From: an uncultured Eggerthellaceae bacterium
GTDB lineage: Bacteria; Actinomycetota; Coriobacteriia; Coriobacteriales; Eggerthellaceae
Reading direction: 5' to 3'
DNA: 40,085 nt
Assembly (NCBI GenBank): GCA_903789415.1
Contig: CAIFEG010000017.1
Span: 622-40,706, forward strand
Below, one piece after another: positions 22,052-40,085 of the stretch. Both the position numbers and the translations under genes were made by a program. The notes beneath the pieces were generated by a model. The model was given only the letters and a program-made list of their open reading frames with translations, was not told the origin of the DNA and did not search any database. The first letter of the stretch is position 1. Each line of letters opens with the position of its first letter.

Positions 22052-22062
22052 TTTCGTCAATC

Positions 22063-22113: not shown

Positions 22114-22131
22114 CTAAAAGCGTAATGCAAT

Positions 22132-22170
22132 GCACCTATTCTCGTTTCCTGGAGTAGGTGCTTCTTATTT
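22132..22170 (+). terminator. Probable terminator after the IscU-like gene
   Basis: GCACCTA (22132-22138) and TAGGTGC (22155-22161) pair, with an inner CTC/GAG, followed by TTCTTATTT. A second GCACCTA copy at 22110-22116 could pair with the same 3' arm, so alternative folds exist. Confidence 0.55.
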
Positions 22171-22171
22171 C

Positions 22172-22185
22172 CGAAAACGTTTTCG
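22172..22185. promoter_or_regulatory. Perfect 14-bp palindrome CGAAAACGTTTTCG, operator-like
   Basis: The site is fully symmetric with a central CG, the form seen in LacI/GalR-family operators. It lies 166 bases before the ABC transporter start, upstream of a possible -10 at 22309-22317 (TGATATTAT). No LacI-type gene is in the window. Confidence 0.4.
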
Positions 22186-22351
22186 ACCTCTCTTCAACAG
22201 CAGAAATTCTGATACCTTTTTCTATTCGAGCATATTTTTCGTCAAATATTTGATTGTTTCTATGACAAATTGAAGACTTTAAATTCCTCATTTAGCACGC
22301 TGAGAACGTGATATTATCTTTTTTAAATCTATTCTTATCTGGGGATAATAC

Positions 22352-23431: not shown

Positions 23432-24210
23432 GCATTGACGTTAAACATGTAAGTTTTTCATACGGCAAACACGAAGTGTTGCATGATGTGTCATTTGAGA
23501 TTCCCGATTCCACGCTGGTAAATGTATTGGGGCCAAATGGCGTAGGCAAGTCTACCCTGTTCAGATGTATTTTATGTCTCAATAATACCTATACGGGACA
23601 AATCCTTGTCAATGGCAAAGACATTCGCAACATGTCGGTGAAAGAACGTGCGCGGGAAATCTCCTATATTCCGCAGTCGCATACGCCTGTCTATGACTAC
23701 GAAGTCATAGATGTGGTGACGATGGCCACGGGACATGAGCTCAAGCTGTTGGCAAACCCGGGCAAAACGCAGCTCGAACATGCCTATGAAGCACTCGAGC
23801 GTGTGGGAATCGAAAAATTTGCGCATCGTACGTATACGCAGATTTCTGGTGGCGAGCAGCAGCTGGTGTTGATTGCAAGAGCACTCGCCCAAAACGCAAA
23901 GACAATCATCATGGATGAGCCAACGAGTGCATTGGATTATGGCAACACGGTACGCGTTCTTTCCTGCGTGAAAGAGCTCGCTCACGAAGGCTTGTCCATC
24001 ATTCAGTCAACTCACAATCCCGACCAAGCATTTCTATATTCCGGTCGCACGCTGGTGCTTTCGAATGGAAGGGTTATGGCTTACGGAGACCCGCGCGACA
24101 TCATAACGTCAGAGCTGATCAGCAAGCTCTATCACGTCGACGTTGACGTTCAATCGCTTTACAACGACAAGGTGCGTGTATGCATCCCTGTTGATCAAAT
24201 CCACGATTAG
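23428..24210 (+). CDS. ABC importer ATPase (FepC/BtuD-type)
   Basis: 260 residues. Walker A GPNGVGKST (35-43), Q-loop in SYIPQSHTP, signature ISGGEQQ (139-145), Walker B TIIMDEP with E164, and H-loop H196 (STHNPDQ) are all intact. It powers import through the permease encoded just upstream, with which it overlaps by an ATGA. It lies 12 bases before the binding-protein gene. It is cytoplasmic and membrane-associated. The order permease-ATPase-binding protein is a normal one for this importer class. Confidence 0.95.
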   Translation: MSIDVKHVSFSYGKHEVLHDVSFEIPDSTLVNVLGPNGVGKSTLFRCILCLNNTYTGQILVNGKDIRNMSVKERAREISYIPQSHTPVYDYEVIDVVTMATGHELKLLANPGKTQLEHAYEALERVGIEKFAHRTYTQISGGEQQLVLIARALAQNAKTIIMDEPTSALDYGNTVRVLSCVKELAHEGLSIIQSTHNPDQAFLYSGRTLVLSNGRVMAYGDPRDIITSELISKLYHVDVDVQSLYNDKVRVCIPVDQIHD

Positions 24211-24222
24211 AAAGAAGGAGAA

Positions 24223-25398
24223 ATGGGAGGAAAAGCGAAATCAAGAAAGAAGCGAATTGGGGGTGTTGTAGCTGGATGTGTAGTAGTATTTGCGCTTGCA
24301 TTTGTACTTGCGTTTTCGCTCGCTTCACTTACCGGCTGCTCATCATCGGATAATTCGCAAGGAGGCAACGGAAATACCACAACGGCTGCGCAAACGAATT
24401 CGGGAAGTTCAGAGACACGTGAATTCACCGATTCAGCGGGACGAACCGTAGAAATTCCTACCAACATTGAACGTATCGCCCCATCTGGCTATACGGCACA
24501 GCAGGTTCTATTGACTATTGCACCAGATAAGATGGTTGGTCTTGCGAGCGAGTTAACTGATGACCAAGTAAAGATTTTTGGTGACGAATTTAAAGACAAA
24601 CCCGTGTTCGGAGCATTCCTAGGTGCAAAAGATACGTTTAACCGCGAAGCAGTGGCCAGTGCAGATCCACAGATCATCATTGATACCGGTGAGAAAAAGG
24701 ATGGTATTGCTGACGATCTCGATAATCTTCAAAACCAGACCGGCATCCCGTGCGTGTTTATCGAAACAACACTTTCGGACTACGGCGACGCCTATCGCAC
24801 TCTTGGCGATCTGTTAGGCGAACAAGACCGTGGAAACGAAATTGGCGATTACCTACAGGGCGCATACGACCAAACCACCAGCGTCATGCAGACCATTCCG
24901 CAGGATCAACGTGCACGGGTTGCCTACATGGTCGGTGACCAGGGAACCAATGCAATTGCCCAAGGATCCTATCAGGGCCAGGTCATCGATATGGTTGCAA
25001 ATAATGTGGTAACTGCCGAAAAGGTATCCGGAAAGGGTGACGGCAACCAAATTTCAATGGAGCAGATGGCGAACTGGAATCCTGATTACATCATCTTCCA
25101 GGACCAGAGTGTTTATGACTCAGCACAAACCGACCCTGCTTGGCTGACTATTTCCGGAATGCAAAAGGGACAAGATTACGTATGCCCGAGTGTTCCGTGG
25201 TGCTGGCTCAACAGCCCTCCAACGGTCAATCAGATGTTGGGCGTGCAGTGGCTTCCGCGCGTCTTATATCCGGATCATTTCAGCGATTCGATTCAGGACG
25301 TGACCAGGACATACTTCAAGACCATGTACAACTATGATCTTTCAGATGACGAATTGAATGACATACTGCAACATGCACTTCCTGCAGATCAGGAATAG
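24223..25398 (+). CDS. ABC importer substrate-binding lipoprotein, class III
   Basis: 391 residues. A basic N-terminus and hydrophobic core end in a lipobox (SLTGC, lipidated C39), followed by a Ser/Asn/Thr-rich linker and a periplasmic-binding domain of the FepB/BtuF/MolA fold, beginning TREFTDSAGRTVEIP. The C-terminal part has PSVPWCWLNSPPTVNQMLG, which looks like the end segment of metal- or oxyanion-binding members of the family. The ribosome site AAGAAGGAG lies before the ATG. It captures the ligand outside the membrane and delivers it to the permease. Iron complexes, molybdate or tungstate are the main options; context favours the last two. Confidence 0.9.
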   Translation: MGGKAKSRKKRIGGVVAGCVVVFALAFVLAFSLASLTGCSSSDNSQGGNGNTTTAAQTNSGSSETREFTDSAGRTVEIPTNIERIAPSGYTAQQVLLTIAPDKMVGLASELTDDQVKIFGDEFKDKPVFGAFLGAKDTFNREAVASADPQIIIDTGEKKDGIADDLDNLQNQTGIPCVFIETTLSDYGDAYRTLGDLLGEQDRGNEIGDYLQGAYDQTTSVMQTIPQDQRARVAYMVGDQGTNAIAQGSYQGQVIDMVANNVVTAEKVSGKGDGNQISMEQMANWNPDYIIFQDQSVYDSAQTDPAWLTISGMQKGQDYVCPSVPWCWLNSPPTVNQMLGVQWLPRVLYPDHFSDSIQDVTRTYFKTMYNYDLSDDELNDILQHALPADQE

Positions 25399-25504: not shown

Positions 25505-25612
25505 TCTGGGCGTTTCGTTTTGTGTGTTTTGTGACTTACGCCTATCGTTTTGCGGCTTGTACCTATTACCTCTTGTGGATACGTGCTTACCGCTTTGTGA
25601 CTTCCGCATTAT
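25501..25612. repeat. Degenerate repeat tract across the stop codon of the second LuxR gene
   Basis: Similar pieces recur at about 20-base spacing: TTTTGTGACTTACGCC, TTTTGCGGCTTGTACC and CTTTGTGACTTCCGC. The last of these encodes the end of the LuxR protein (EVTKR, stop at 25587); the others lie beyond it between the gene and its terminator. Confidence 0.45.
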
Positions 25613-27464
25613 CCACCAGGCGCATAAGCTCCTGCTGACTATGCACGTTCAGCTTGCGGTAGATATGGCGGATATGCGTCTTCGCCGTGCCTTCGCTGAT
25701 GAAAAGCTTGTTCTCGATGTATTTGGCGTTGAAGCCTTTTGCGAGATAGAAGAACACCTCTGTTTCACGACGGGACAACAGGAAGGTATTTGCCACCGCT
25801 TCGCAGCGAATGCGGAACGGTCCCGGGCGTTTTCCGCCCTTTTGGTCTTTTGCGCCATTCTTACCGGTATTCTCTGGTCCCTCATATCCGATAGACATTC
25901 CGGCAAGGCGCACACTTGAGCGATATGAAAGCTTCGGTGATTGATGCGGTGCTGGCTTCGATACGGGTTGGGTTTGTCCGGAGCTGCTTTCTGCCCCATG
26001 GGTTTGTCCAGATGCTTCGGCACTACCATTCGCGACGGAGCCCACATTCGCGTCGTTTGCATGGGTGACACGCGTGGTATTATCGGCGCCGTTGAGGCCG
26101 TTCGCCGTGTTGACGCCGTTCGCGTTGGCATCATATGAAGGTGCCTGCACACCAGGAGCAGAAGACCCCTGCGCACCAGGGGCCAGCTGTTCCGCATCCA
26201 AATCAGAGCGAAAACTGTTCGCAAGCATGGGACCCGATTTCACCAACCGTGCAATGTCCCGCTCTCGTGGGAGCAGCGCACATCCTATAAGCAGCAAGAT
26301 GATAAACATCAGAGACATCTGATACACATCTAAAGAAATGTTCCCGTAGGTCGACACGATCGCCGGCAGAAACGTCTCGACCAAAATGCCGAATGCCATC
26401 ATTCCACGTCCAAGGCCAAACATAAGCACCGGTGACACGCGGAAATTCGCTGACACGCCACAGAAGAAAATCCAAAGAAGTGCCTCGAATGAGAAACATC
26501 CGATAAGCGGGATCAAAGCTAAAACAAACGATGATCCACTCGCGTTAAAGAAACCCGGGATAAACGCAAGCGCAACGAAGGGGATCGCAGGGCGAAAATA
26601 ACGTTCCCACCGTATGGTTCCATCATTTTTTTGCATCGCAAGGAAAAAGATAAGCATGGTAATTCCGCTGGCGACTACAAGTAAAAGTCGATTCGATGGA
26701 CTTGCCGCAGGAAGCATCGCCTGAATAGAAATCTGTCGAAGCGAGCTGAGGACAATACCCATGATAACGATAGGCACGCTGATGGTCAGAAGAAAGCGCA
26801 ACCTGTTAACCGGCAGTGGATTGAAAATAGGGGCATTGTCCGCATCATCACCTTCGGGAATTTCCTCGGGAGTAATCTGCCATAACAGCCAGAGTTCAAC
26901 AAGAGGAATCAGCATGGCGATGATTTCTGATACAGGGTATGGAATAAAGCTAAGCAGGAGCACAAAAACCACAATACTCAGGAACACAGAGATAGCAGTT
27001 CCTGCAACAATCACTTTCGCATCACAGCGGGAATACGCCACGCCCCAAAATATGATGAGGAACGCCGATCCTGCACCGGTGGTAAGTCCGGATATCACCC
27101 CAAGAAATTGATTGCTTATGCTGTCCGTGAACAAAAACAAAAATGTACCGATACACGCAAGGACAGCGGAAACTACCAGGAGCTTTTTTGACGTGTAGAA
27201 ATTTAAAAATTTCTGATCGGTCGCACCTGCAAAGAGTAAGCACACAACGTACGCGAAAATAGATACGACATACGGCAAGGTCAGATGCGTACCAAACGAT
27301 CCTTGCCAAATCATTTGTGTGCCAAAAAGCATAGGCGCACCAAACATGGTGGCATATACCCATGCCTGATGAAGACCAAAGCCTATTGACAAATATGGAA
27401 GTGTTCTCTCACTTCCCGGCTGAATAGAAGATTTACGAGATTGTCCCCGATTCATCTCAGCCAC
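25587..27464 (-). CDS. Membrane-bound LuxR-family transcriptional regulator with long linker
   Basis: About 625 residues. I prefer the GTG at 27464, seven bases after AGGGG; an earlier in-frame ATG exists at 27557. Roughly 400 residues with about 12 hydrophobic segments begin LPYLSIGFGLHQAWVY. They are followed by a linker of about 110 residues rich in Ala, Asn, Gly, Ser and Thr, and then a LuxR helix-turn-helix (LLSRRETEVFFYLAKG, YIENKLFISEGTAKTHIR). It has the same architecture as the regulator at 18423 apart from the long linker. Likely targets are the nearby TorD operon and the molybdoenzyme operon at 33725, by the usual pairing of such regulators with respiratory genes; this is inference. 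Confidence 0.9.
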   Translation of the reverse strand: MAEMNRGQSRKSSIQPGSERTLPYLSIGFGLHQAWVYATMFGAPMLFGTQMIWQGSFGTHLTLPYVVSIFAYVVCLLFAGATDQKFLNFYTSKKLLVVSAVLACIGTFLFLFTDSISNQFLGVISGLTTGAGSAFLIIFWGVAYSRCDAKVIVAGTAISVFLSIVVFVLLLSFIPYPVSEIIAMLIPLVELWLLWQITPEEIPEGDDADNAPIFNPLPVNRLRFLLTISVPIVIMGIVLSSLRQISIQAMLPAASPSNRLLLVVASGITMLIFFLAMQKNDGTIRWERYFRPAIPFVALAFIPGFFNASGSSFVLALIPLIGCFSFEALLWIFFCGVSANFRVSPVLMFGLGRGMMAFGILVETFLPAIVSTYGNISLDVYQMSLMFIILLLIGCALLPRERDIARLVKSGPMLANSFRSDLDAEQLAPGAQGSSAPGVQAPSYDANANGVNTANGLNGADNTTRVTHANDANVGSVANGSAEASGQTHGAESSSGQTQPVSKPAPHQSPKLSYRSSVRLAGMSIGYEGPENTGKNGAKDQKGGKRPGPFRIRCEAVANTFLLSRRETEVFFYLAKGFNAKYIENKLFISEGTAKTHIRHIYRKLNVHSQQELMRLVDNAEVTKR

Positions 27465-27595
27465 ACGACCACCCCTCAACGGTCGAAATTGGCGCTCTTC
27501 TGAATTCCCAGTTACAAAGAGCTTTCTTCTTAAAGTATTCTGTTTTGCCGCATACAAAATCTCTGTTGGCTTCTGTACGCTTCAAGTAAATTCTA

Positions 27596-28367: not shown

Positions 28368-29258
28368 ATGAGCGAAGAGAAAAAGGCATCAAAAAAGGAT
28401 GCCACATCCGATGAGGACATTTTGTTTCCTCAATCAACGTTTGACTATGATCCGTTGAGCGTTGATGACAACGAAATCGATCAAGAGAAAATGGATGACG
28501 ACAATCCGTACGATACCGTCGATTATCCAACCGTTCGTAACATGCCAGAGGATATGCATCACGGACCGCGCTATACCGCGGAGCGCCAAGGCAGTGTGGA
28601 GAAAGCAGTCGATGAACTGTTTGACCACAATCCATCGCGCAAGCCCGTGTTCTTGAAGATCCTGAAATGGTGCGAAGGCGGAAGCCTTAATAGCGAATTG
28701 TCTGAAAAGATTAAGGCGGCGCAGAACAACAATTATTCCGTGTACACGCCTACGATGTTGTGCCGGATGCTCGAACGCACCGGTGCCCTCACCCTTACGA
28801 TGCCCGAGACAAGTGAGGAAGAGGAAGATATCGAAGATGGCGTTCGCTATCTGAAGATTAACAAACATGTCGACCCCACCTGGACCACCACCGAAGATGG
28901 TTCTGAGGTATATCAAAAATATATGCAGGGTGACGAATTCAAGGACATCGTGCTGAATCGTGATGTGAAGTACGCCGAGCCTTATTTGGTTATTCTCAAT
29001 GCGTTAAACGAGGCGCCTCATTCGAAGAAGGAGCTGGAAGATATGGTGAATGACATGCCTATTCTTCAGCATCCGCGCCGTTTCGGCGGACATTTCATCG
29101 ACATGCTTGAGCGCTGCGCGGCAATCGAGTGGCGAGATCGTTCGTGGCACATCACCGACCTTGGCAAAGCGATGATTCCCGCAGTACAGCAGAAAGTATT
29201 TGAGATGAAAGAAGCCGAACTTACCAAGGATCAGGAGTCACAAAATGCCGCAGAATAA
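28368..29258 (+). CDS. Winged-helix-like protein of unknown function, linked to TorD
   Basis: 296 residues, cytoplasmic, acidic. After a 60-residue disordered start come two similar helical units that look like winged helix domains. Unit one (about 75-150) has VFLKILKWCEGGSLNSELSE, then MLCRMLERTGALTL. Unit two (about 205-275) has YLVILNALNEAPHSKKELED, then FIDMLERCAAIEW and SWHITDLGKAM. The shared feature is MLER followed by a hydrophobic strand. The start has GAGGGGAACGT upstream. It overlaps the TorD gene by 14 bases, so the pair is one operon. I do not recognise a named family; a role as chaperone partner or regulator for molybdoenzyme maturation is a guess from context. Confidence 0.8.
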   Translation: MSEEKKASKKDATSDEDILFPQSTFDYDPLSVDDNEIDQEKMDDDNPYDTVDYPTVRNMPEDMHHGPRYTAERQGSVEKAVDELFDHNPSRKPVFLKILKWCEGGSLNSELSEKIKAAQNNNYSVYTPTMLCRMLERTGALTLTMPETSEEEEDIEDGVRYLKINKHVDPTWTTTEDGSEVYQKYMQGDEFKDIVLNRDVKYAEPYLVILNALNEAPHSKKELEDMVNDMPILQHPRRFGGHFIDMLERCAAIEWRDRSWHITDLGKAMIPAVQQKVFEMKEAELTKDQESQNAAE

Positions 29259-30069
29259 TACCGAACAAGCAGCTTCCGTATCCGAAGAAGAACGCCGCAC
29301 GTCGGCCCCTGAAAATACGGCAGCATCAAAGCGCTCACAGGATGCTTCCGCACCTGAAGAAGAACAAACGACCGACACCGAAGGGTCCGAAGAAGAAGTA
29401 GATTTACCTTCCCTGATGAATATGCGTGCACGTACCTATGGCGTTTTGGCGCGCTTGTATCGAAAAGAAGTTGACGATGATGTCCTAAAAGAGCTGCAGG
29501 GAATGCGCTTCCCTACCGCTACGGGAAATAAGAAGGTGGATAAGGGATATCGCCTTTTGTATGACTATCTGAAAGGTGCCTGGGAGGACAGCGTGACCGA
29601 GCTTGCGGTGGACTACGTGCGCACCTTCATTGGGCACGGCGTGAATGGATACTCTGCGGCATATCCGTATGAAAGTGTGTATACTTCGGAAAAACGCCTG
29701 ATGATGCAGGAAGCCCGCGCAGAAGTTTTACAGACGCTGCGCGATAACCACCTCAAGCGCAATCAATGGAATGAGGGCGAAGATCATATCGCCATCGAGT
29801 TGGAGTTCATGCAGCGTATGTCGATGCGTACCGCCAAAGCGCTGCGTGACGAGCGCGAAGATGATGCGATTACCTATCTTGAGACGCAATTCCGGTTTGC
29901 CAATGATCACCTGATGAACTGGCTGCCGATGCTTACCAAGGATATGTTGATGTTCGCAAAGACTGATTTTTACAAGGGTCTTGCGTATTTGACCATGGGA
30001 TATGTCGAAGAAGACGTTGATATCTTGAAAGAGCTGCTTGATAGCGTCAATGATGGCGAGGCGGAATAG
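29245..30069 (+). CDS. TorD/DmsD-family molybdoenzyme chaperone
   Basis: 274 residues. The first 55 are acidic and disordered; the TorD helical fold follows, with YPYESVYTSEKRLMM (the Y-ES-Y motif) and EDHIAIELEFMQRM (the DH-E-EFM motif). The function in the family is binding the Tat signal and apo-catalytic subunit of a molybdoenzyme before export. The closest candidate client is the 1253-residue enzyme at 33725, whose own operon within the window has no TorD. It overlaps the upstream winged-helix-like gene, with AGGAGTCACAAA before the ATG. A strong terminator follows. Confidence 0.9.
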   Translation: MPQNNTEQAASVSEEERRTSAPENTAASKRSQDASAPEEEQTTDTEGSEEEVDLPSLMNMRARTYGVLARLYRKEVDDDVLKELQGMRFPTATGNKKVDKGYRLLYDYLKGAWEDSVTELAVDYVRTFIGHGVNGYSAAYPYESVYTSEKRLMMQEARAEVLQTLRDNHLKRNQWNEGEDHIAIELEFMQRMSMRTAKALRDEREDDAITYLETQFRFANDHLMNWLPMLTKDMLMFAKTDFYKGLAYLTMGYVEEDVDILKELLDSVNDGEAE

Positions 30070-30160: not shown

Positions 30161-32161
30161 CTATTCGATCTCAAATTTTCCTAAAAATGCCTGGCCACCG
30201 ATGGTGCTCGGAGCAGCATTGCCCGCTTCCTCCAAGTAATGAGACGGGCGTGTAAGGGCGATACGCTTCCCGTCTTCCGACTTCACGCGAACAATTTGCA
30301 TGTTGGTACGCGCGGCAAGTTCCAGGTTTGACCGGCGGAAAAACGAAAAAATGAGGCGCTTGTTCGCCTTCGAAATTGCACAGAGGAACTTTCTGCGATC
30401 CTCGTTTAAAATACGATCGCGTGTTTCGTCAGTGCTCACGACCTCGAAAGCTCCTTGACGCGGAACAAATCCATCAATGGCAGCCATGAAGAAGACATTA
30501 TCGTATTCACAGCCCGAGAGATTTTCCATCGTGCTGATGTGAATGGCATGAGGGTTCATCGGCCAGGTAGGAGTCATAATCTCGCGACGCATGAGGTCAA
30601 ACATCTGCTCGGCGTTTTCATCGCCGACGATACGCTGTTGCAGCGGCTCGAATTCGATAAGGTCGAGTGCGCCCACGGCGCGAAGGAGATCAAAACCATG
30701 TCTGCCCGCATTGTGCTTGATGAATTCCTGTCCCTCTTCAAAGCGCTTTCCAAGCTCTTCGGAACGCAAGAACATCGAAGAGTCCGACAGCGTATGCGAA
30801 AGGGCATCGTAGAGATCCATTTCGTGTTCCTGCGCGTAATTTTGCAGCGACAGCCAGAAGTTACTGCGGGTGAGGTGATCATTAAAGCCACACCAACTTC
30901 TCCATGAGGTAAGATCCTGCGGATGTGCAAGCAGCGCGAGCTTCGTATACGCAACCAAGGCACGCGCTCGGTTCGTATCGCGCGGATCGCCAGTGAACTG
31001 GCCAAAGGCGCCCGCACACGATACTTCAAACCCACGCTTTTCCAGCAGGTTTTTCGCCATGAGTGCCCACGTCTTGTTCGGCACTACCACACAGGTGCGA
31101 CCCTCAAAAATCTCTTCTTGTTGCTCATCAGACTCCGTTTTTGGTGCGCGATGCAACTTCTTATCGATATCGGTGCGATCTTTGTCACCATCTAAAACAA
31201 GGCGAATATACTTGGTAAGTTCGTTTGCCTCTTCTTCAGGCGTTGCCCATTTCACCGCGCAAAATGTCTGGTCATTAAGGTTGGTTGGCGCTTCGTTTGT
31301 CGAGGCATACGCAGGATTCATGTCCCCATGATGCGCGAGCGCATTTGCCATCGCGATGACCTGGTCATCTCCAAATGATTGCTGAAGTTTGAATACCTCA
31401 ACGCCACGGCGCAGCGTATCAAATTCGGTAAACCCTTGGGGATAAGGATGGCGGCACGCAATCTGGAGCGTTTCATTGGGGTTGCCGGCGACGATGACAC
31501 GATCCTTCGCCAACAGGCACATACTTACCTGCTGCGCGTGACTTAGGTTTTGGAAATCATCGCAAAGAACCACGTCATAGTGCTTTGCATACGCCGATCC
31601 CGCATCACTTTTCAGGAAGTCCGCTGCAAGCATGGGTGCCTCAGACGGAAGCATCGCATTGCGCGAGGTCAGAATGGTACGAATGATTTTCAAGAGATTC
31701 TTTTCGGGAACCCCCACCATCCAATCGTCAAATGGCGTGTAGTTTTCCATTTCACGGTAGAAATACGAAACCATGTTACGCAGCTTGCGGTTCGTCTCAC
31801 CGGTTGTACGAATATCTTCCAAGAAGAAAAGATATTCTGCACGGGTGAGCAGGCGTGGAATCCTGCCGGTGCTTTCGCGCGCATCTTTCGTGTTTAAGAC
31901 CCGCACGCATTCTTCAAGGGCGGTAGTGATGTGCACATGTTGCGCCGCATCCTTTTGATCTTCAGGTACAAATGAGACGAGACGGTCGCGTAATGCCTGC
32001 ACCGAAAAGCCGTTTGATGCAACGACGAGAATCTTTTGGGGATCGGTTCCCTGGGTCAGCAGCTGCGCCGTGTAGCGGACAATTGCTTCGGTTTTTCCGG
32101 AGCGCGGGGCACCTTCAATTTTTGCCATACGGCCGGTAAACGCCAGGATATCTTCCATCAT
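30161..32161 (-). CDS. UvrD-like superfamily 1 ATPase/helicase with degenerate motifs
   Basis: 666 residues. Walker A is intact (GAPRSGKT, 17-24). Motif II is DDFQN (201-205) instead of DEFQD. Motif III is AGNPNET instead of GDxxQxI. The region matching motif V is STMENLSGCEYDNVFF, without the usual KG, and motif VI is DRRKFLCAISKANKRL instead of RRLxYVAxTRAK. The overall UvrD/PcrA layout (1A, 1B, 2A, 2B) is kept. It may bind ATP but have altered or lost helicase activity. It follows the coiled-coil gene at 32172 by ten bases and forms an operon with it. No nuclease domain is seen. Function in this respiratory neighbourhood is unknown; it may be an unrelated conserved pair. Confidence 0.82.
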   Translation of the reverse strand: MMEDILAFTGRMAKIEGAPRSGKTEAIVRYTAQLLTQGTDPQKILVVASNGFSVQALRDRLVSFVPEDQKDAAQHVHITTALEECVRVLNTKDARESTGRIPRLLTRAEYLFFLEDIRTTGETNRKLRNMVSYFYREMENYTPFDDWMVGVPEKNLLKIIRTILTSRNAMLPSEAPMLAADFLKSDAGSAYAKHYDVVLCDDFQNLSHAQQVSMCLLAKDRVIVAGNPNETLQIACRHPYPQGFTEFDTLRRGVEVFKLQQSFGDDQVIAMANALAHHGDMNPAYASTNEAPTNLNDQTFCAVKWATPEEEANELTKYIRLVLDGDKDRTDIDKKLHRAPKTESDEQQEEIFEGRTCVVVPNKTWALMAKNLLEKRGFEVSCAGAFGQFTGDPRDTNRARALVAYTKLALLAHPQDLTSWRSWCGFNDHLTRSNFWLSLQNYAQEHEMDLYDALSHTLSDSSMFLRSEELGKRFEEGQEFIKHNAGRHGFDLLRAVGALDLIEFEPLQQRIVGDENAEQMFDLMRREIMTPTWPMNPHAIHISTMENLSGCEYDNVFFMAAIDGFVPRQGAFEVVSTDETRDRILNEDRRKFLCAISKANKRLIFSFFRRSNLELAARTNMQIVRVKSEDGKRIALTRPSHYLEEAGNAAPSTIGGQAFLGKFEIE

Positions 32162-32171: not shown

Positions 32172-33254
32172 CTATTCCTGGAAGGAGCCAACACGTGCAT
32201 CGTACACGCGGCTTGATCCATCTTCGTAGTTTACTTGCCAGATGTCGTAGGTCAGCGGGAAGTCGGCCTGCTTGAGCTCGTAAATCTTCTTGTAGTCCTC
32301 GCCATCCGTTTCGCCTTCGGCTTGATCGGTTTCACCTTCGGCCTGGTCGGTTTCTGCCTCCTGGTCGGCTGCATCCTCTGTCTGGTTCGTTTCGGCATCG
32401 GGAGTGCTTTCCTGGTCGCCTGCCGCGGCAGTCGTGGCTTTGTCGGCCTCGGTTTCATCTGCCGCCGCTTCGTTGGCGTTATCTCCACGAAGACCTTCGC
32501 GCTCATCACGCGGCATGGGCTCCACTTCATCGGTTAAGCCGCGAGCCTTTTTGACCGAAAAGCCATGCTGCGCACTTGCCTCTTTAGTAAGCTCTGGAGA
32601 CTCAAGGAAGTCCTCATCGGCCTTGTGTTCAGCCTCGATCCTTGCCTTGGCTTCCTGTTCTTTCTTTGCCGCCTCTTCTTCCCGGCGACGCTCTTCGGCT
32701 TCTTGTTTTGCCTTTTCACCAGCTACTTTTTGCGCCTCGTAGGACTCTTCGTCAGGCAAGACCACGCTGGTTACCCCATCGCCGAGCGCGCCATCACTAT
32801 ACTTCTGGCGCAATTCAGAAATGGCTTTCGCTGCCTTATCGGGCTCAACCGCGTTGGTGGTTTCGCAACGAAGCTTTGCGGTGAGTGCACCGTTTTCGAA
32901 CTCGAGCTCATACCATTTAATAGCCAGCTCATCATTTCCAATACGCGACTGGCGGCGATTAAAGATGCGCATGTTGTTGCTCACGTTATAGAGCTCGTTA
33001 TAGATCCAGCGCTCCATAACCTCACGCCACAGTTCGTCGGCACCCTCGTCGGATGATTTCAAATACTTACGCTGACCCATGCGAATCAGAAAGCGCGCCG
33101 TATTTTCTGGCTCGCCTTCACTTGCTTCGTGGTAACGCAAAAGTGTTTGCGCTACGTGCGTAAAGCACCGTGAAACTTCGAGTTTTAATTCGTCATTTTT
33201 TAGACGCTCATCGACATCTAAGATCAGTGTTAAAGACGGATGAGGCAATCCCAT
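32172..33254 (-). CDS. Protein of unknown function with helical core and acidic repeat tail
   Basis: About 360 residues. The ATG at 33254 has GGAGGGCCTT upstream and is preferred to one at 33293. Residues 1-165 form a folded alpha/beta domain (starts MGLPHPSLTLILDVDERL; holds ERWIYNELYNVSNNMRIF). A long charged coiled coil follows (about 170-215, rich in KQEAEERRREEEAAKK), then an acidic, Ala/Glu/Asp/Thr-rich low-complexity stretch with a repeated AEGETDQ unit. It ends with a short conserved-looking domain (FPLTYDIWQVNYEDGSSRVY). No cysteine cluster or membrane segment. It is the first gene of the operon with the UvrD-like ATPase, so the two products probably act together. I recognise no family. 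Confidence 0.78.
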   Translation of the reverse strand: MGLPHPSLTLILDVDERLKNDELKLEVSRCFTHVAQTLLRYHEASEGEPENTARFLIRMGQRKYLKSSDEGADELWREVMERWIYNELYNVSNNMRIFNRRQSRIGNDELAIKWYELEFENGALTAKLRCETTNAVEPDKAAKAISELRQKYSDGALGDGVTSVVLPDEESYEAQKVAGEKAKQEAEERRREEEAAKKEQEAKARIEAEHKADEDFLESPELTKEASAQHGFSVKKARGLTDEVEPMPRDEREGLRGDNANEAAADETEADKATTAAAGDQESTPDAETNQTEDAADQEAETDQAEGETDQAEGETDGEDYKKIYELKQADFPLTYDIWQVNYEDGSSRVYDARVGSFQE

Positions 33255-33724
33255 AAGGCCCTCCTTGTTTTGTTGCTCTCCCATGCGATGCAAAGCGTTT
33301 CGCTCGCATCATCCTTTTGTCTAAAACAACTGTAATCGCAGATGAATATATAAAATAATCCCACAAGGATGATATCTGTCATCCAGAAGCATCCTTCCCT
33401 TATGATTCCCAAACTTTTCTTCTCCTTACTATTTGGGTAACAAAATAGTTTGAGGGGGAAGCTCAACTATCGCGGGCTCTGAAAGAACTTCATGAGTTAT
33501 TTCAATGAGTTGGTTCATGACGTACTAACTACGTTAGTTTCGACTCAATTGATTGATTCAAAACTCAATGAACGACCGCATGAATAACTGCATGGACCTC
33601 TTTCGCGACTGCCTCGATTTCTTGACTGCATGGAATTGCTGATTCAAGCAAACGATTCGCAAGCTCTTTTTCTCAAATCTGTTTTGAAAGACACACATCT
33701 ATTGTTCAAGGAGAGGAGGGGCAT
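33255..33724. promoter_or_regulatory. Divergent control region upstream of the 1253-aa molybdoenzyme operon
   Basis: 470 bases without a supported gene. It holds an inverted repeat GGATGA-N6-TCATCC (33367-33384) with extra CATCC half-sites on both sides (near 33310 and 33390), and CCCAAA...TTTGGG. A 15-bp dyad ACTAAC-TAC-GTTAGT lies at 33524-33538. The stretch 33490-33690 repeats short words (ATGAGTT, ACTCAAT, CTGCATGGA). AAGGAGAGGAGGGGCAT precedes the ATG at 33725. Several regulator sites are likely; none is identified. Confidence 0.6.
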
Positions 33725-36700
33725 ATGGCGAAACTTACACTCACGCGTCGTAGTTTTCTAAAAGCAGCCGCCGTGACTGCTGCTGCGGCCTCAGTGGGGT
33801 TTGCTGAAAAACCTTCGACCGCACTGGCCGTTGGTGAAGACGAATCAGCAGGCGAAGTAAGACGTATTCGTTCATGTTGTCGTGCATGCGGCAAATGCGA
33901 ATGCGGCGTTTGGGTAACCGTTCAAGATAACAAAGTATTAAGAGTTGAAGGCGACGAGTCCAGCGCACATAGTCGTGGACATTGTTGTGCGAAATCGCAG
34001 TCTTCAATGCTGGCTTTGTATCACCCAGACCGACTTCGCTATTGTATGAAGCGCACAAACCCGAAAGGTGAAGACGATCCAGGATGGATTCGTATTTCAC
34101 TCGCCGATGCCTTCGACGAAGCAGGCAGAAAGTTCAATGAAATCGTTGAGAAATACGGTGGAGAATCTTGCTTCGCAATGGGAGGAACTTCTCGTGTATG
34201 GGCACAGCCTCCATACGGCACACTGAAATCAATTTTCCCTACGCCAAATGCTCACTTAGCGTACGAGATCTGCAAGGGACCACGTCACTTCGGCGGAATC
34301 TTGACCGACGAGATCGGTTCGCCTTGGATGGAAGTTGAGCAGGGACCAATGGTGTACGTGCAATGGGGCACCGCACCTGAGTACTCTAACTACGACTCCA
34401 CCAACCGTACCGTCGTCGATTGTTCACAGCGTGCATACAAGCACATCATCGTTGACCCTCGTATGACCCCGCTGGGAAAAGAAGCAGACCTTTGGCTGCC
34501 TCTGCGCGTGGGCACCGACCTTTGCATGGCTTTAGGTTGGTTAAAGTGGATCATCGACAACGAAGCGTACGATGATTTGTTCGTACGTCGTTGGACGAAT
34601 GCTCCATTCCTGTGGAACCCAGAAGAAGGCGGACGCACCAGAAAAGGTTGGTTCCTGGAAATGAACGGCGGCATCGATATGGAGAGCCGTCTGTTAACCG
34701 AGGCCGATCTTGATCGTGATTGGGTACGCCAGTACTGGGAGCCCGCAGATCCGCAGTATTCATATCGTCGTTTCATCTGCTGGGATGAAAACAACCAAAA
34801 ACCAACCTATTGGGATGCAGAGCGTTGCCAATGGGAAGGTGAACGTCAGAAGATTCCGACGACCGGAACCTGGATTGAGCATCCGTATAAGCCAATCGTG
34901 GCTGATGCATGGCTGCCTGATCCTTCACATTTCGCTGATCCTGCTGATCCTCAATACGATGCGTATTGGGACGAAGGAAACGAAGGCGGACGTCGTTCCA
35001 ACCCTCGTGGACTTCCGAAGAACCCGTCACTGTTCCCTGGTGGCGTAGAGATTAGACTCGCAAATGGTCAAACCATTCAGGCGCGCACCGTTTGGGAGGC
35101 ATTCTCTGACAGCCTAAGCGATTACACCTTGGATTACGTTTCTCAAGTAACCGAAGTGCCTGCCGACAAGATTGAAGAGGCAGTTCGCACCTACACCACT
35201 CGCCTGAACCCTCTCTATGGCAATGGTGGTATCCACTATCAGCTGGCTCCAGACCAGACCGGACACGCCGTGCAGAATACACGTGCACTTCAGATTATTG
35301 CGTGCATCACCGGCAACTCTGATATGCCTGCAGGTAACCGTGGATCTTCAAAGGCACAAGTCGATGGCTGCGCAGGACGTGCAAACATGCGCGTTACCGA
35401 CCACCAGCCTCAGGATTGGGGAATTCGCCAGGGCGTTGGCACCATGAACTTGGGCGACACCCCTCGTGACCTTTCGATTCAGCAGCAAATTCCGCTGATT
35501 CAGAACTTTGTACAGTACTTGCTGGACAACAATTCTCCTTTGGCAGAACGCTACGGAAACCATGTTCCTACCGACGACGAAGCTCGTTGGATCGCAGAGC
35601 GCAAAGGTGGCAATTATCTAAGCAGCCGCAGCTGGCCTGCACTTACCACCGTGTTCGATCAGAACGCAAAGCAGATCTCTGCAGATCGTTTCCCGCTGCT
35701 TCGCTATTGGAACCGTTGGGCAGATGCATCTGCTATCTGGGACTCTATCAATGGAATTAATACTCCGTACCAGATTCATGGTGGCGTGTGCATGTCTGGC
35801 GACTTCATGAACCAAAGCAATCTGCTTGAAGCATGGGAAGCACTCACCCGCTTAGACTTCTGGTTAGACTTCAACTTGTGGTCATGCCCGAACAACGGAT
35901 GCGCCGACATCATCATCCCTGTTCTTCACTGGCTTGAGTGCAACACCGGCCGTGTTTCACAGGGCGCAGGCGGACTGTTTGGTGCAGGTCAACGTACCGT
36001 TGAGCCTATGGGCGACTGCATCTACGACCCTGTGGCCGTTATTTGCCTGTATGAAGCAATGGCAAAGGCGCTCACCGGCAAAGAGCATCCAACCCGTGAG
36101 GACATCCCTGCAGATCGTCGTTCTGTTATTTGGAACGACCGCGACCTTAACTACGATGGCTGGAACAACCTGGACTACACGCAGTTCGTGCAGATGGGCG
36201 GTCCGGTCACCTATGAGCAGCAAGAATATCGTGTGCTCAAAGATGCAACCGATGCATGGCGTATTCCTGAATTCCAATACAAGGAAACTCAGCCTGAACC
36301 TGTCATCCCTGACTTCCCTGACTATGCTGCATCAGAGCGTCCTGCTCAGGTTATCAACGATGTTGCGGGTCCTGACTTCCCTGAATATGCAGCGAAGTTC
36401 CAGGAAGAAGGTTGGTTCGACTGCCGTAAGTGGCACCCAGAGCGCTGGGGCACCTATCGTCGTTGGGAAATGGGCTATCGTCGTCAGCAAGGCGGCTACA
36501 ACCTGTATCCTGCTATCGACGAAAAGTGCGGCTTCATGACCCCTACCGCAAAGGTAGAAATTTGGTCTACGATCGCTGAGTCCTATATTGGCGACAACAC
36601 GGAAACATTTGCTGCTTCTTGCCAGCCAGAGCGTGCTGCATATGATGGTTCAATTCCTGATATCGATAAGTTCCCTCATTGGTTTGAGCCAAAGAACTCC

Positions 36701-37486
36701 AAGATTCAGGCCCCTCAGTACTATCATGCAGATCTCGCCGACCAGATTACGACCAGCGACGCCTACATCAACGAGCACTACACCGGCGACCATGCAATGG
36801 AAGAATATCGCGATGCCCTCAAACAGTATGGTGATGACCATGCGTTCATCGCGACCACCGGCTCTCGTCAGCCTGTCTACTTCCACACCGAGCATCGTCA
36901 GCTGCCATGGTGCCGGGAGCTTTGGCCTTCTCCACGTGTTGAAATCAACCCGAACGATGCAGCACGCGTTGGCGTAAAGCAAGGCGATTGGGTATGGCTG
37001 CGCAGCCCTTGGGGTGCCGTTCGTGAAGTTGTCGATCTGTACTACGGCATCAAAGAAGGAACCATCAACGCAAACCACGCATGGTGGTACCCAGAGATTG
37101 ATACCGCATCACACGGCTTCGAGCTGGTAAGCATTAACTGCCTGATGGATAAGTACGCACAGTGCTGGGTCTGCGGAGGTTCGCAACTTCGTGGTCTGCC
37201 AATGCTGATGTACAAGGCAACCGCTGATAACAGCCCGTTCGGCAACCCGGTTCCATGCGATCCAAATGGCAACCCTGTCATTACGAACGCACAAGATCCT
37301 CGTTTGAAGGAATGGTTGTCCAACGATCCGCGCTTAGCTGATTCTACGGTCAACATTCTGTTTGCAAACAGCGAAGCTACCGGCTTGCAGCCATCAATTC
37401 AAAGCCCTGACATTTATCCAAATGGCAAACTCGTTCCAGGCGATATCGGAAACGACGAACTTGGCCAGTACAGTAGGAAAGATTAG
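33725..37486 (+). CDS. Very large Tat-exported molybdopterin oxidoreductase
   Basis: 1253 residues, DMSO reductase superfamily but far longer than usual (700-1000). Tat signal at the N-terminus (LTRRSFLKAAAVTAAAA). The Fe-S region has many cysteines: C51, C52, C55, C58, C60 and then C87, C88 (SRGHCCAKSQ). C183 in AYEICKGPRHFGG is the best candidate for the metal ligand. A C-terminal molybdopterin domain follows (FIATTGSRQPVYFHTEHRQL; QGDWVWLRSPWG). The length and the membrane-LuxR context recall the large bis-MGD enzymes of Eggerthellaceae that reductively transform aromatic or other small molecules; acetylene hydratase and transhydroxylase are also distant relatives. Substrate unknown. Strong codon bias suggests high expression. 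It heads the operon continued by the Fe-S, anchor and NapG-like genes. Confidence 0.93.
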   Translation: MAKLTLTRRSFLKAAAVTAAAASVGFAEKPSTALAVGEDESAGEVRRIRSCCRACGKCECGVWVTVQDNKVLRVEGDESSAHSRGHCCAKSQSSMLALYHPDRLRYCMKRTNPKGEDDPGWIRISLADAFDEAGRKFNEIVEKYGGESCFAMGGTSRVWAQPPYGTLKSIFPTPNAHLAYEICKGPRHFGGILTDEIGSPWMEVEQGPMVYVQWGTAPEYSNYDSTNRTVVDCSQRAYKHIIVDPRMTPLGKEADLWLPLRVGTDLCMALGWLKWIIDNEAYDDLFVRRWTNAPFLWNPEEGGRTRKGWFLEMNGGIDMESRLLTEADLDRDWVRQYWEPADPQYSYRRFICWDENNQKPTYWDAERCQWEGERQKIPTTGTWIEHPYKPIVADAWLPDPSHFADPADPQYDAYWDEGNEGGRRSNPRGLPKNPSLFPGGVEIRLANGQTIQARTVWEAFSDSLSDYTLDYVSQVTEVPADKIEEAVRTYTTRLNPLYGNGGIHYQLAPDQTGHAVQNTRALQIIACITGNSDMPAGNRGSSKAQVDGCAGRANMRVTDHQPQDWGIRQGVGTMNLGDTPRDLSIQQQIPLIQNFVQYLLDNNSPLAERYGNHVPTDDEARWIAERKGGNYLSSRSWPALTTVFDQNAKQISADRFPLLRYWNRWADASAIWDSINGINTPYQIHGGVCMSGDFMNQSNLLEAWEALTRLDFWLDFNLWSCPNNGCADIIIPVLHWLECNTGRVSQGAGGLFGAGQRTVEPMGDCIYDPVAVICLYEAMAKALTGKEHPTREDIPADRRSVIWNDRDLNYDGWNNLDYTQFVQMGGPVTYEQQEYRVLKDATDAWRIPEFQYKETQPEPVIPDFPDYAASERPAQVINDVAGPDFPEYAAKFQEEGWFDCRKWHPERWGTYRRWEMGYRRQQGGYNLYPAIDEKCGFMTPTAKVEIWSTIAESYIGDNTETFAASCQPERAAYDGSIPDIDKFPHWFEPKNSKIQAPQYYHADLADQITTSDAYINEHYTGDHAMEEYRDALKQYGDDHAFIATTGSRQPVYFHTEHRQLPWCRELWPSPRVEINPNDAARVGVKQGDWVWLRSPWGAVREVVDLYYGIKEGTINANHAWWYPEIDTASHGFELVSINCLMDKYAQCWVCGGSQLRGLPMLMYKATADNSPFGNPVPCDPNGNPVITNAQDPRLKEWLSNDPRLADSTVNILFANSEATGLQPSIQSPDIYPNGKLVPGDIGNDELGQYSRKD

Positions 37487-37503
37487 AGAAGGGAGGTACT
37501 CAA

Positions 37504-38160
37504 ATGGCACATTACGCAATTTTGACAGACTTAAACCGTTGCACCGGATGCTTGTCCTGCACGGTAGCCTGTAAAGCAATCAATGGTGTTCCTGTCGGGC
37601 ATTTCTGGATTAAAACCCTTCGTGTTGGTCCACATCCAAAATATGAAGGGGCACAATTCCCCGACGTCGAGATGTACTTCCTTCCTATGCAGTGTCAGCA
37701 TTGCGAACATCCTGAATGTGTGGAGGTATGTCCTACCGAAGCATCTCATGTTCGTGAAGATGGCACCGTTCAAATCGACAGAAGCAAATGTATCGGATGC
37801 CGCTTCTGTGTTATGGCTTGTCCATACGGAGTACGTTATCTGAACGAAGAAGACCGCGTCGTAGAAAAATGCACCCTCTGCGAAGAAAGAATTACGCAAG
37901 GAGAACTTCCCCAGTGCGTGTCTCAATGCGGTGCACGTGCACGCTTCTTTGGCGATCTTGATCAGGGTGTCGACAACTTTGAGGCCCCTGCTCACCCCGA
38001 TAGCCCTGGTTGTCAGTACGACGAAATGACGCAGACGCGCGTCAGACTGAAGGACTACGTGGAACCCTATAAACCAAGCGATATTCATCATGTTGTCGAT
38101 GTCGGCAACCATCCGAAGATGATGTATCTGCTGCGCGAAGGCAGAGAGTGGAGGGAGTAG
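37504..38160 (+). CDS. DmsB-like four-cluster 4Fe-4S subunit
   Basis: 218 residues with four ferredoxin-type cysteine groups: C13-x2-C16-x2-C19-x3-C23, CQHCEHPECVEVCP, CIGCRFCVMACP and the CTLCEER...QCVSQCG pair. It transfers electrons between the DmsC-like membrane anchor and the large catalytic subunit and has no signal of its own. It lies 17 bases after the catalytic gene, with GGGAGG as ribosome site, and three bases before the anchor gene. The C-terminal 60 residues extend beyond the fourth cluster and may contact the large subunit. Confidence 0.95.
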   Translation: MAHYAILTDLNRCTGCLSCTVACKAINGVPVGHFWIKTLRVGPHPKYEGAQFPDVEMYFLPMQCQHCEHPECVEVCPTEASHVREDGTVQIDRSKCIGCRFCVMACPYGVRYLNEEDRVVEKCTLCEERITQGELPQCVSQCGARARFFGDLDQGVDNFEAPAHPDSPGCQYDEMTQTRVRLKDYVEPYKPSDIHHVVDVGNHPKMMYLLREGREWRE

Positions 38161-38163
38161 AAC

Positions 38164-39063
38164 ATGGAACCACAATGGCCGCTTATTCTCTTCACATTCT
38201 TCCTTTGCCTCGCCGGCGGCATATTCGGCATGCAGGGTTACCTGGACGTTAAAGGCAAAGGCGCCAAGATGCAGAAAGCATCGCTGCTGATGTCCCTTAT
38301 CGCCCTGATCGTTGGCGGAATCTCGGTATTCTTCCACCTGCAGCACTGGGAGCGCATCTTCAACGGCTTCGGACACATCACCTCAGGCATTACGCATGAG
38401 TTTATTATCTGCATCGTGTTTGCGGTGGTGTTGCTCATCTACTTCATCATGATGCACCGTTCCGAAGACAACCTGGCACCGAAGTGGTGCGGCGTGCTCG
38501 CGATTATCGTGGGCCTGTTGATGCCAATCGTCACCGGCTTCAGCTATCTGATGCCTGCGCGTCCTTCTTGGGATACCCCGCTGTTGGTGCTGTACTACAC
38601 CGCCAACACGTTTGTCCTGGGTTCGCTTACCGCGATGATCATCGCCGACGTCAAGAAGGAAGACGACGTCAAAGACGAGCTAGGGAAATGGGCACTTTGG
38701 AGTGTCATAGTCGAGCTCATCATCGTGTTCATCTACGCATGCGTCATCAACGCATCGGGCAACCTGTACTCTTCTGACATTCAGTACTACTTCGACCCAA
38801 CCCTGCCGGATGTTCCTATGGTGGACCGTGTGGGTATCGAAACAAGCCTGTTTGCTGGATCACAAGCTGTTTCTTTCTGGTTGGGCACTATCGCAGTTGG
38901 ACATGTTGTTCCGTTGGTCCTTCTGTTCATGCTCAAGAAGAAGAATGAAAAGTATCGTGGCTATTCAGTCGTCGCATTCATTTGCGCCGTCATCGGAAGC
39001 TTCACCTGGCGCGTAAGCCTCTATGTCGTAGCACTGGATATCTTCTCGCTTTTCATTCCGTAG
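38164..39063 (+). CDS. DmsC-like membrane anchor subunit
   Basis: 299 residues with eight hydrophobic segments. It begins MEPQWPLILFTFFLCLAGG, the pattern of DmsC anchors, which bind menaquinol and hold the DmsAB-type pair on the outer face. The histidine in FFHLQHWER, after the second hydrophobic segment, may lie near the quinone site, by analogy. The gene starts three bases after the DmsB-like stop, with GGAGGGAG upstream. It is followed by a stem-loop at 39071, but the NapG-like gene 180 bases on is in the same direction and may belong to the same operon. Confidence 0.9.
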   Translation: MEPQWPLILFTFFLCLAGGIFGMQGYLDVKGKGAKMQKASLLMSLIALIVGGISVFFHLQHWERIFNGFGHITSGITHEFIICIVFAVVLLIYFIMMHRSEDNLAPKWCGVLAIIVGLLMPIVTGFSYLMPARPSWDTPLLVLYYTANTFVLGSLTAMIIADVKKEDDVKDELGKWALWSVIVELIIVFIYACVINASGNLYSSDIQYYFDPTLPDVPMVDRVGIETSLFAGSQAVSFWLGTIAVGHVVPLVLLFMLKKKNEKYRGYSVVAFICAVIGSFTWRVSLYVVALDIFSLFIP

Positions 39064-39070
39064 GAATTAT

Positions 39071-39097
39071 CTCCTCGCGACACGCCTTCGCGAGGAG
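39071..39097 (+). other. Perfect 10-bp stem-loop after the anchor gene
   Basis: CTCCTCGCGA and TCGCGAGGAG pair around a seven-base loop, eight bases after the stop. The next bases (CACTTCACCTTTT) are not a proper U-run, so it may protect the mRNA end or act as a weak terminator. Confidence 0.6.
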
Positions 39098-39158
39098 CAC
39101 TTCACCTTTTAAACGACTGGCCGCCTTTAGAAGGTTTGGTTTTGAAAACATGTGATGG

Positions 39159-39210
39159 ACAGGGCTGGTACCACGTAAGATCTTCGCTTATTGCAGCAGA
39201 CCAGCCCTGT
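39159..39210 (+). other. 11-bp inverted repeat in the leader of the NapG-like gene
   Basis: ACAGGGCTGGT (39159-39169) and ACCAGCCCTGT (39200-39210) pair exactly around a 30-base loop. TATT and a later TTTT follow. It lies 36 bases before the ATG at 39246 and could be a terminator, an attenuator or an operator. Confidence 0.55.
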
Positions 39211-39245
39211 TATTCATGGGTTTTCGAATATTAAGGAGGGGGATT

Positions 39246-40073
39246 ATGGCCGAAGTGAATAATCAATCAGATTCTGCTGAAGAAAAGCAGAAAGCTGCTG
39301 ATGCCAAATCCAAGGAAACTCAATCTGCCGAGGTGAATGCCGAAGCGCAAGCCAACTCGCAGGCCGCAACACAGGCCGAAGGGCCAACCTCGGGCGAAGA
39401 AGCTTCAAGCGAACAAAGCTCGGGCGAAGAAGCCACGCCGCGCCGTCAACCGAAAAATTTAACCAGGCGAGCGCTGTGTATTGGGTTAGGAAGTACCGCT
39501 GCCCTACTGGGAATAGGAGCGCTGCGATATGTGGGACACACCCCCGTCAATCGTCCACCAGGAGGACAAGACGAGAGTCATCTGGTAAGTGCGTGCATTC
39601 GCTGCGAGCGTTGCTATGAAGCATGCCCACGTCACGTTATTGTTCCTGCACATGTGGAAAATGGCATCCTGGGAGTACGCTCTCCACAACTGAATTTCGA
39701 CAACGATTACTGCGATTTCTGTCAACAAGAAAACGATGGCGTGCCTCTGTGTGCATCACACTGCCCCACCAATGCGTTGAATTTACCCGCCGGAGCCACA
39801 CAGCAAACCACCATCATCGGTCTTGCCGTGCTGGATCCGAGCACCTGCTTGGCCTACCACGACACGGGCTGCCAGCTGTGCTATGATGCCTGCCCCTATA
39901 ACGCAATTGAGCTTCAAGGCAACGGTAACCGACCACACCCTGCCGTCATTCCTGAAAATTGCAATGGATGCGGCGCATGCGAATCCGTATGCATTTCTTT
40001 GAAGTCTGGCTCCCTGGGTGAGGGAGCAACCGAACGTGCCATCAAAGTACGTCCACTCGCCACGTTGAATTAG
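39246..40073 (+). CDS. NapG/MauM-like ferredoxin-type 4Fe-4S protein
   Basis: 275 residues. The ATG at 39246 has TTAAGGAGG upstream and is preferred to an earlier in-frame ATG at 39216. A 75-residue acidic, Ala/Glu/Gln-rich start precedes a Tat-like segment (NLTRRALCIGLGSTAALLG). Four 4Fe-4S groups follow: CIRCERCYEACP, CDFCQQ...CASHCP, CQLCYDACP and CNGCGACESVC. NapG-type proteins carry electrons on the outer face of the membrane and usually pair with a NapH-type membrane ferredoxin. GGGAGGG after the stop suggests a further gene starts at the window edge, possibly such a NapH. Likely an added electron route for the 1253-aa enzyme. Confidence 0.9.
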   Translation: MAEVNNQSDSAEEKQKAADAKSKETQSAEVNAEAQANSQAATQAEGPTSGEEASSEQSSGEEATPRRQPKNLTRRALCIGLGSTAALLGIGALRYVGHTPVNRPPGGQDESHLVSACIRCERCYEACPRHVIVPAHVENGILGVRSPQLNFDNDYCDFCQQENDGVPLCASHCPTNALNLPAGATQQTTIIGLAVLDPSTCLAYHDTGCQLCYDACPYNAIELQGNGNRPHPAVIPENCNGCGACESVCISLKSGSLGEGATERAIKVRPLATLN

Positions 40074-40085
40074 GGAGGGCATACG

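What the first reader, a model, noticed from the sequence alone, without database searches (positions are those of the whole stretch)
33725..40085. 1253-residue molybdoenzyme operon of unknown substrate
The catalytic subunit is several hundred residues longer than usual, has an unusual cysteine-rich N-terminal region (C51, C52, C55, C58, C60, C87, C88) and is accompanied by both DmsBC-like and NapG-like electron carriers. The setting with membrane LuxR regulators resembles specialised gut actinobacterial reductases. It may act on a plant, drug or host small molecule.
Basis: partly seen in the sequence, partly recalled or inferred. Interest (0 to 1): 0.6.

Follow-up and report, generated by a model that had tools for sequence, protein, structure and literature searches.

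The report
Hydrocaffeic acid dehydroxylase operon, orthologue
This is a gut actinobacterium's version of a known enzyme system (Hcdh of Eggerthella lenta) that strips one hydroxyl group from hydrocaffeic acid, a breakdown product of plant polyphenols; it is not an enzyme of unknown substrate.

Summary
The operon is real and read correctly, but its substrate is not unknown. The 1253-residue protein is the orthologue of Eggerthella lenta hydrocaffeic acid dehydroxylase (Hcdh). It is 78% identical over the whole alignment, and 82% over all 1193 aligned residues, to the E. lenta type-strain protein. I identified that protein as Hcdh by length, mass, identities to its paralogues, and elimination. 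It falls inside the Hcdh clade (bootstrap 100, SH-aLRT 100), sister to the valeric-acid dehydroxylase Elen_0497.

The neighbourhood is the published Hcdh/Dadh type: A-B-C subunits, NapG, a divergent helicase, a DadhE-like hypothetical, a TorD chaperone and a membrane LuxR, in the same order as in E. lenta. The 'unusual' cysteines are a normal [4Fe-4S] motif. The extra length over E. lenta Hcdh is 60 residues.

Most likely it dehydroxylates hydrocaffeic acid to m-hydroxyphenylpropionate as a respiratory electron acceptor outside the membrane. The chemistry is inferred from orthology and was not shown here.

Side results: the same genome carries a dopamine dehydroxylase orthologue with the active-type arginine, and Hcdh operons share a covarying RNA hairpin between subunit C and napG that Rfam does not contain.

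The parts
33725..37486 (+). hcdhA: catalytic subunit, 1253 aa, TAT signal, [4Fe-4S] ligands C52/C55/C60/C88, predicted Mo ligand C183
   Evidence: 78.3% identity over the full alignment to E. lenta 3518954-3522535; Hcdh clade 100/100; Pfam Molydop_binding 67 bits, Molybdop_Fe4S4 29 bits; residue conservation
37504..38160 (+). hcdhB: ferredoxin subunit, four cysteine groups for four [4Fe-4S] clusters
   Evidence: 84% identity to the E. lenta hcdh-locus B gene versus 59-72% to B of other E. lenta dehydroxylases; Pfam Fer4_11
38164..39063 (+). hcdhC: membrane anchor, NrfD/DmsC type, 7 strong hydrophobic segments
   Evidence: 63% identity to the E. lenta hcdh-locus C gene versus about 36% to other C genes; Pfam NrfD, DmsC; hydropathy
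39064..39245 (+). structured hcdhC-napG spacer with strong hairpins; the loop conserved in relatives is degenerate here
   Evidence: fold z -4.9; orthologous spacers; model R1 does not match the window
39246..40073 (+). napG-like membrane-associated polyferredoxin (DadhG type)
   Evidence: NapG model hit 88 bits; 64% identity to the E. lenta hcdh-locus gene
32172..33293 (-). conserved hypothetical, 373 aa, divergent from hcdhA
   Evidence: 49% over residues 10-235 to the E. lenta gene in the same place
30161..32161 (-). UvrD-like helicase, DadhD type
   Evidence: Pfam UvrD-helicase; about 48% to the helicase of the E. lenta hcdh locus, 26-30% to the dadh-locus helicase
29245..30069 (+). TorD-like chaperone, DadhF type
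   Evidence: Pfam Nitrate_red_del 109 bits; 72% to the E. lenta gene
28368..29258 (+). hypothetical protein, DadhE type
   Evidence: 53% to the E. lenta hcdh-locus gene, 26% to the dadh-locus one
25587..27557 (-). membrane LuxR regulator, probable HcdR orthologue
   Evidence: Pfam GerE; 42% over the membrane part and 52% over the DNA-binding part to the LuxR in the same place near E. lenta hcdh; 9 strong hydrophobic segments

Best explanation
The operon encodes the orthologue of E. lenta hydrocaffeic acid dehydroxylase and its accessory proteins. Shown: orthology, gene order, signal peptide, cofactor and cluster ligands. Inferred: the TorD-like chaperone guards the catalytic subunit during bis-MGD and Fe-S insertion and TAT export. 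The A subunit sits outside the membrane, bound through ferredoxin B to anchor C. Electrons from menaquinol reach the Mo centre through C and B, helped by NapG/NapH. The Mo centre, bound by Cys183, removes the para-hydroxyl of hydrocaffeic acid to give m-hydroxyphenylpropionate, which serves as an electron sink. The membrane LuxR regulator switches the operon on when hydrocaffeic acid is present. The helicase is needed for expression, as DadhD is for Dadh.
For: A contig of exactly 3,632,260 bp identifies the E. lenta type strain. Its gene at 3.52 Mb encodes 1193 aa, 134.0 kDa, 35.8% identical to Dadh and 58-63% to the 635-kb paralogue. Published Hcdh: 1193 aa (PMC11585353), 133.9 kDa and 35.3% to Dadh (PMC7028382), 60.6% to ELEN_0497. 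Seven such enzymes exist in that genome; PMC11887054 says all are assigned. Window versus that protein: 78.3% of the alignment, 82.2% of 1193 aligned residues. This passes the published cut-offs of 75% identity at 90% coverage and 72% for the Hcdh network cluster, which was found isofunctional in cultures. Trees. The window has the Hcdh residue at 62 of 63 positions separating the Hcdh and Vadh clades. Same gene order in E. lenta.
Against: No activity or expression data exist for this organism. A paralogue at about 61% identity (Elen_0497) has different substrates, so a shift at 78-82% is possible though less likely. The window genome's contig ends after napG, so napH and the polyferredoxin were not seen in it. 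The identity of the type-strain gene as Hcdh rests on matching published numbers and elimination, not on a locus tag. HcdR is assigned by position and similarity only.
Confidence: 0.92

Rival explanations
1. Hcdh-clade enzyme that has shifted to a related catechol acid, such as dihydroxyphenyl-valeric acids, caffeic acid or DOPAC.
For: The sister clade (Elen_0497, Vadh) acts on dihydroxyphenyl-valeric acids; members of this enzyme family are very substrate-selective.
Against: The window carries the Hcdh state at 62 of 63 clade-separating positions and sits well inside the clade with E. lenta Hcdh; cultures whose enzymes fall in the published Hcdh cluster dehydroxylated the predicted substrate.
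Confidence: 0.06
2. Respiratory reductase for DMSO, nitrate, thiosulfate or another inorganic acceptor.
For: Best NCBIfam hits are PhsA, Fdh-alpha and DmsA models; DmsB/DmsC-type partners.
Against: All these hits are far below their cut-offs, e.g. 145 of 694 bits for PhsA. The predicted Mo ligand is Cys, not the Ser of DMSO reductase or the Asp of NarG (ligand types from general knowledge). The protein falls inside the catechol dehydroxylase tree.
Confidence: 0.01
3. Acetylene hydratase or pyrogallol transhydroxylase.
For: Acetylene hydratase is the best PDB match by sequence and by fold.
Against: The sequence match covers only parts (113 bits) and the structural alignment has 16% identity, against 78-82% to Hcdh; PMC7028382 describes catechol dehydroxylases as relatives of acetylene hydratase with shared origin, a separate clade.
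Confidence: 0.01

Closest known systems
Hydrocaffeic acid dehydroxylase (Hcdh) of Eggerthella lenta, PMC7028382 and PMC11585353
   Same: Full-length orthology (78-82%), A-B-C subunits, TAT signal, accessory genes and their order, membrane LuxR at a distance from the enzyme genes
   Different: 60 residues longer, mainly inserts at residues 780-799 and 853-881; 48% GC window; degenerate hairpin loop in the hcdhC-napG spacer
El Vadh (Elen_0497), PMC11887054
   Same: Sister clade, 61% identity, same subunit plan
   Different: Acts on dihydroxyphenyl-valeric acids; has its own adjacent LuxR in a multi-enzyme cluster; fixed differences at 63 positions
Dopamine dehydroxylase (Dadh) of E. lenta
   Same: Same enzyme class and same kind of accessory genes D-I
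   Different: 44-46% identity, 1012 aa as read here; the window's genome holds a separate Dadh orthologue
Acetylene hydratase (PDB 2e7z)
   Same: Same fold family, Cys ligand to the metal, [4Fe-4S] site
   Different: 727 aa, non-redox hydration, low identity

Membership tests
Hcdh (E. lenta hydrocaffeic acid dehydroxylase) | At least 75% identity over at least 90% coverage (published presence cut-off); at least 72% for the Hcdh network cluster | tested here: met
   78.3% of the alignment, 82.2% of 1193 aligned residues; 100% of El Hcdh and 95% of the window protein covered; cut-offs
Hcdh (E. lenta hydrocaffeic acid dehydroxylase) | Falls in the Hcdh clade, apart from Elen_0497 | tested here: met
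   22-row clade SH-aLRT 100; 12-row clade 100/100; 62 of 63 separating positions
Hcdh (E. lenta hydrocaffeic acid dehydroxylase) | Three subunits, TAT signal, accessory helicase, DadhE-like protein, TorD, NapG, NapH, ferredoxin | tested here: met
   napH and polyferredoxin seen only in relatives because the contig ends
Hcdh (E. lenta hydrocaffeic acid dehydroxylase) | Regulated by a membrane LuxR (HcdR) not adjacent to the enzyme genes | tested here: inconclusive
   LuxR at 25587-27557 matches the E. lenta gene in the same place, 42% in the membrane part; that this gene is HcdR is inferred
Hcdh (E. lenta hydrocaffeic acid dehydroxylase) | Converts hydrocaffeic acid to m-HPPA; induced by hydrocaffeic acid | not testable with these tools
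   Needs culture or enzyme assay
DMSO reductase / nitrate reductase | Ser (DMSO reductase) or Asp (NarG) Mo ligand; curated family cut-offs reached | tested here: not met
   Cys183 at the ligand position; NapA 81-83 bits of 904-931, dmsA_ynfE 112 of 778
Acetylene hydratase / pyrogallol transhydroxylase | Close similarity to the characterised enzyme | tested here: not met
   Acetylene hydratase 113.5 bits in pieces and 16% identity in the fold alignment; transhydroxylase not among the phmmer matches listed

The most novel reading that the evidence does not exclude
The hcdhC-napG spacer of Hcdh operons holds an undescribed structured RNA element: a hairpin with a nearly invariant CUGGUC loop and freely covarying stem, followed by a long second hairpin. 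It would act in cis on expression of the electron-transfer genes downstream, possibly through the operon's own helicase. The conservation of the structure is shown; its function is not, and a terminator or attenuator remains the simplest reading.
Probability: 0.2. Interest if true: 0.5.

Novelty: new member of a known kind. Interest (0 to 1): 0.22.

Why it matters
It removes one entry from the list of orphan gut molybdoenzymes and gives a testable prediction: this small-genome actinobacterium should dehydroxylate hydrocaffeic acid and, from its second enzyme, dopamine. It also shows that the Hcdh locus keeps its place and its accessory genes across several genera, which ties it to the helicase-chaperone-NapGH set that the E. 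lenta dadh work showed to be needed.

Tried and rejected
Unknown-substrate reading: rejected by clade placement. DMSO, nitrate or thiosulfate reductase: rejected by model cut-offs, Mo ligand and tree. Unusual cysteine-rich domain: rejected, canonical [4Fe-4S] site. NapG as an odd extra: rejected, it is part of the known accessory set. Rfam search: nothing at gathering thresholds for the window; at E up to 10 for the E. lenta and Adlercreutzia spacers only eukaryotic or sub-threshold matches. Idea that the CUGGUC hairpin is a general E. lenta terminator loop: not supported, since of the first 30 of 81 TTCTGGTCG words only one reached even 8 loose pairs; but another intergenic hairpin with this loop exists near 2497135, so a terminator role is not excluded. 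The AlphaFold model was only moderate (mean pLDDT 69, pTM 0.75) and was used for the fold class alone.

Full report
WHAT IS THERE. The ORF at 33725-37486 encodes 1253 residues with a TAT signal. It is followed by a ferredoxin subunit with four cysteine groups, an NrfD/DmsC-type anchor with seven strong hydrophobic segments, and a NapG-like protein. From the ribosome-binding site, napG starts at 39246, not 39216. The window runs to the last base of its contig. In relatives the next two genes are a NapH-like membrane ferredoxin and a polyferredoxin. On the other side, divergent, lie a 373-aa hypothetical and a UvrD-like helicase, then a hypothetical, a TorD-like chaperone and a LuxR with a membrane part. 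The order is kept in several other genera.

IDENTIFYING THE REFERENCE. That genome encodes seven large dehydroxylase-type proteins: one at 602-605 kb, five at 635-667 kb and one at 3.52 Mb. The last is 1193 aa, 134.0 kDa, 35.8% identical to the 602-kb enzyme (Dadh, next to a LuxR) and 58-63% to the 635-kb enzyme. Published values for Hcdh are 1193 aa (PMC11585353), 133.9 kDa and 35.3% to Dadh in strain A2 (PMC7028382), and 60.6% to ELEN_0497 (PMC11585353). PMC11887054 states that all catechol dehydroxylases of this strain are assigned, so elimination gives the same answer. The 602-kb protein has Ser at the position equivalent to 506 (my start lies five codons downstream of the likely annotated one), as published for the inactive Dadh of this strain, which supports the identification.

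MEMBERSHIP. The window protein is 78.3% identical to E. lenta Hcdh over the full alignment and 82.2% over all 1193 aligned residues. This passes the published 75% identity / 90% coverage cut-off and the 72% network cut-off; members of that cluster tested in culture dehydroxylated the predicted substrate. In a quick tree of 59 sequences it lies in a 22-row Hcdh clade (SH-aLRT 100). In a careful tree of 31 it lies in a 12-row clade with bootstrap 100 and SH-aLRT 100. Of 63 positions fixed differently between the Hcdh and Vadh clades, the window has the Hcdh residue at 62. The accessory genes match too: B 84%, C 63%, NapG 64%, TorD 72%, helicase about 48%, DadhE-like 53%, in the same order and orientation as in E. 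lenta. The LuxR matches the E. lenta LuxR in the same place at 42% over its membrane part, where such domains are generally under 20% identical between paralogues (PMC9734109). HcdR is published as not adjacent to hcdh, which fits, but the assignment is by position.

THE 'UNUSUAL' FEATURES. C52, C55, C60 and C88 are invariant and are the [4Fe-4S] ligands. C51 and C87 are common in the family and C58 is variable. The predicted Mo ligand is Cys183, invariant in the window and all 56 other dehydroxylase sequences checked, and aligned with the metal-binding Cys region of acetylene hydratase and polysulfide reductase. Length within the clade runs from 1170 to 1266; the window has 60 more residues than E. 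lenta Hcdh, mostly at 780-799 and 853-881. A predicted structure of moderate quality falls in the DMSO reductase fold family with acetylene hydratase as best match.

HOW IT WORKS. Shown: orthology, signal, ligands, gene order. Inferred from PMC11887054 and PMC7028382: chaperone-guided cofactor insertion and export, electron flow from quinol through C and B with NapGH, and reductive removal of the para-hydroxyl of hydrocaffeic acid. The respiratory role is inferred from work on related dehydroxylases.

DISTRIBUTION. By my count of the match table, 26 of 122 Eggerthellaceae genomes searched hold an enzyme at 76% or more over the first matched segment. The fixed genomic neighbourhood in several genera suggests inheritance in place with losses, unlike the published hypervariable cadh cluster.

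SIDE RESULT, SPACER RNA. Between hcdhC and napG, relatives carry a hairpin whose loop (CUGGUC, closed by U-G) is nearly invariant while the stem sequence differs completely. On 21 sequences 87.7% of cells pair against 55% in shuffles and 30-52% when slid; 10 of 12 pairs show changes on both sides. An exact-loop scan of about 2 Mb of fetched loci (some of them overlapping) found 20 hits: 19 in hcdhC-napG spacers and one downstream of the eCadh C gene in E. lenta. In whole-genome searches with a covariance model the hcdh-spacer hit is the best in five genomes (G011, G005, G049, G061, G022), with other hits near chance; the window's genome has no match in its hcdh locus. The window's own spacer is strongly structured (z -4.9) but its loop is degenerate. 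No Rfam family fits. Its function is unknown; an attenuator or terminator is the simplest reading.

VERDICT. A well-supported orthologue of a characterised enzyme system: ordinary in kind, useful as an annotation.

Noticed in passing
own genome G000 contig C3:24395-27451 (locus L176): Orthologue of E. lenta dopamine dehydroxylase, 84.4% over 1012 residues, with its own accessory genes and Arg at the position equivalent to 506 (active type; the E. lenta type strain has Ser).
   Followed up: partly
window 39064-39245 and orthologous spacers, e.g. L168:8046-8373, L066:14090-14279: Conserved hairpin with CUGGUC loop and covarying stem between hcdhC and napG, plus a second long hairpin whose apex often reads YYYCGC..CGCA; not in Rfam.
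   Followed up: partly
E. lenta L170 and L171, downstream of the Vadh, Eddh, Cadh, Eldh1 and eCadh C genes: A repeated large hairpin (e.g. CCTCGAGCGCGATTCGTC..TCCCCATACCCCCTTGCAAAC..GACGGATCGCTCTCGAGG) follows each C gene in the multi-enzyme cluster.
   Followed up: no
window 907-7231 (-): Type II-A CRISPR-Cas genes: Cas9 (1475 aa), Cas1, Csn2.
   Followed up: partly
window 10502-14979 (-): A second molybdoenzyme operon: PhsA/PsrA-like catalytic subunit (724 aa), NrfC-like ferredoxin, NrfD-like anchor, TorD-like chaperone; substrate not determined.
   Followed up: no
window 15017-18341: Aldehyde ferredoxin oxidoreductase (tungsten-type) gene next to a divergent polyferredoxin gene.
   Followed up: no
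window 20270-25398: FecCD-type ABC importer with a periplasmic binding protein; could serve metal, molybdate/tungstate or corrinoid uptake.
   Followed up: no
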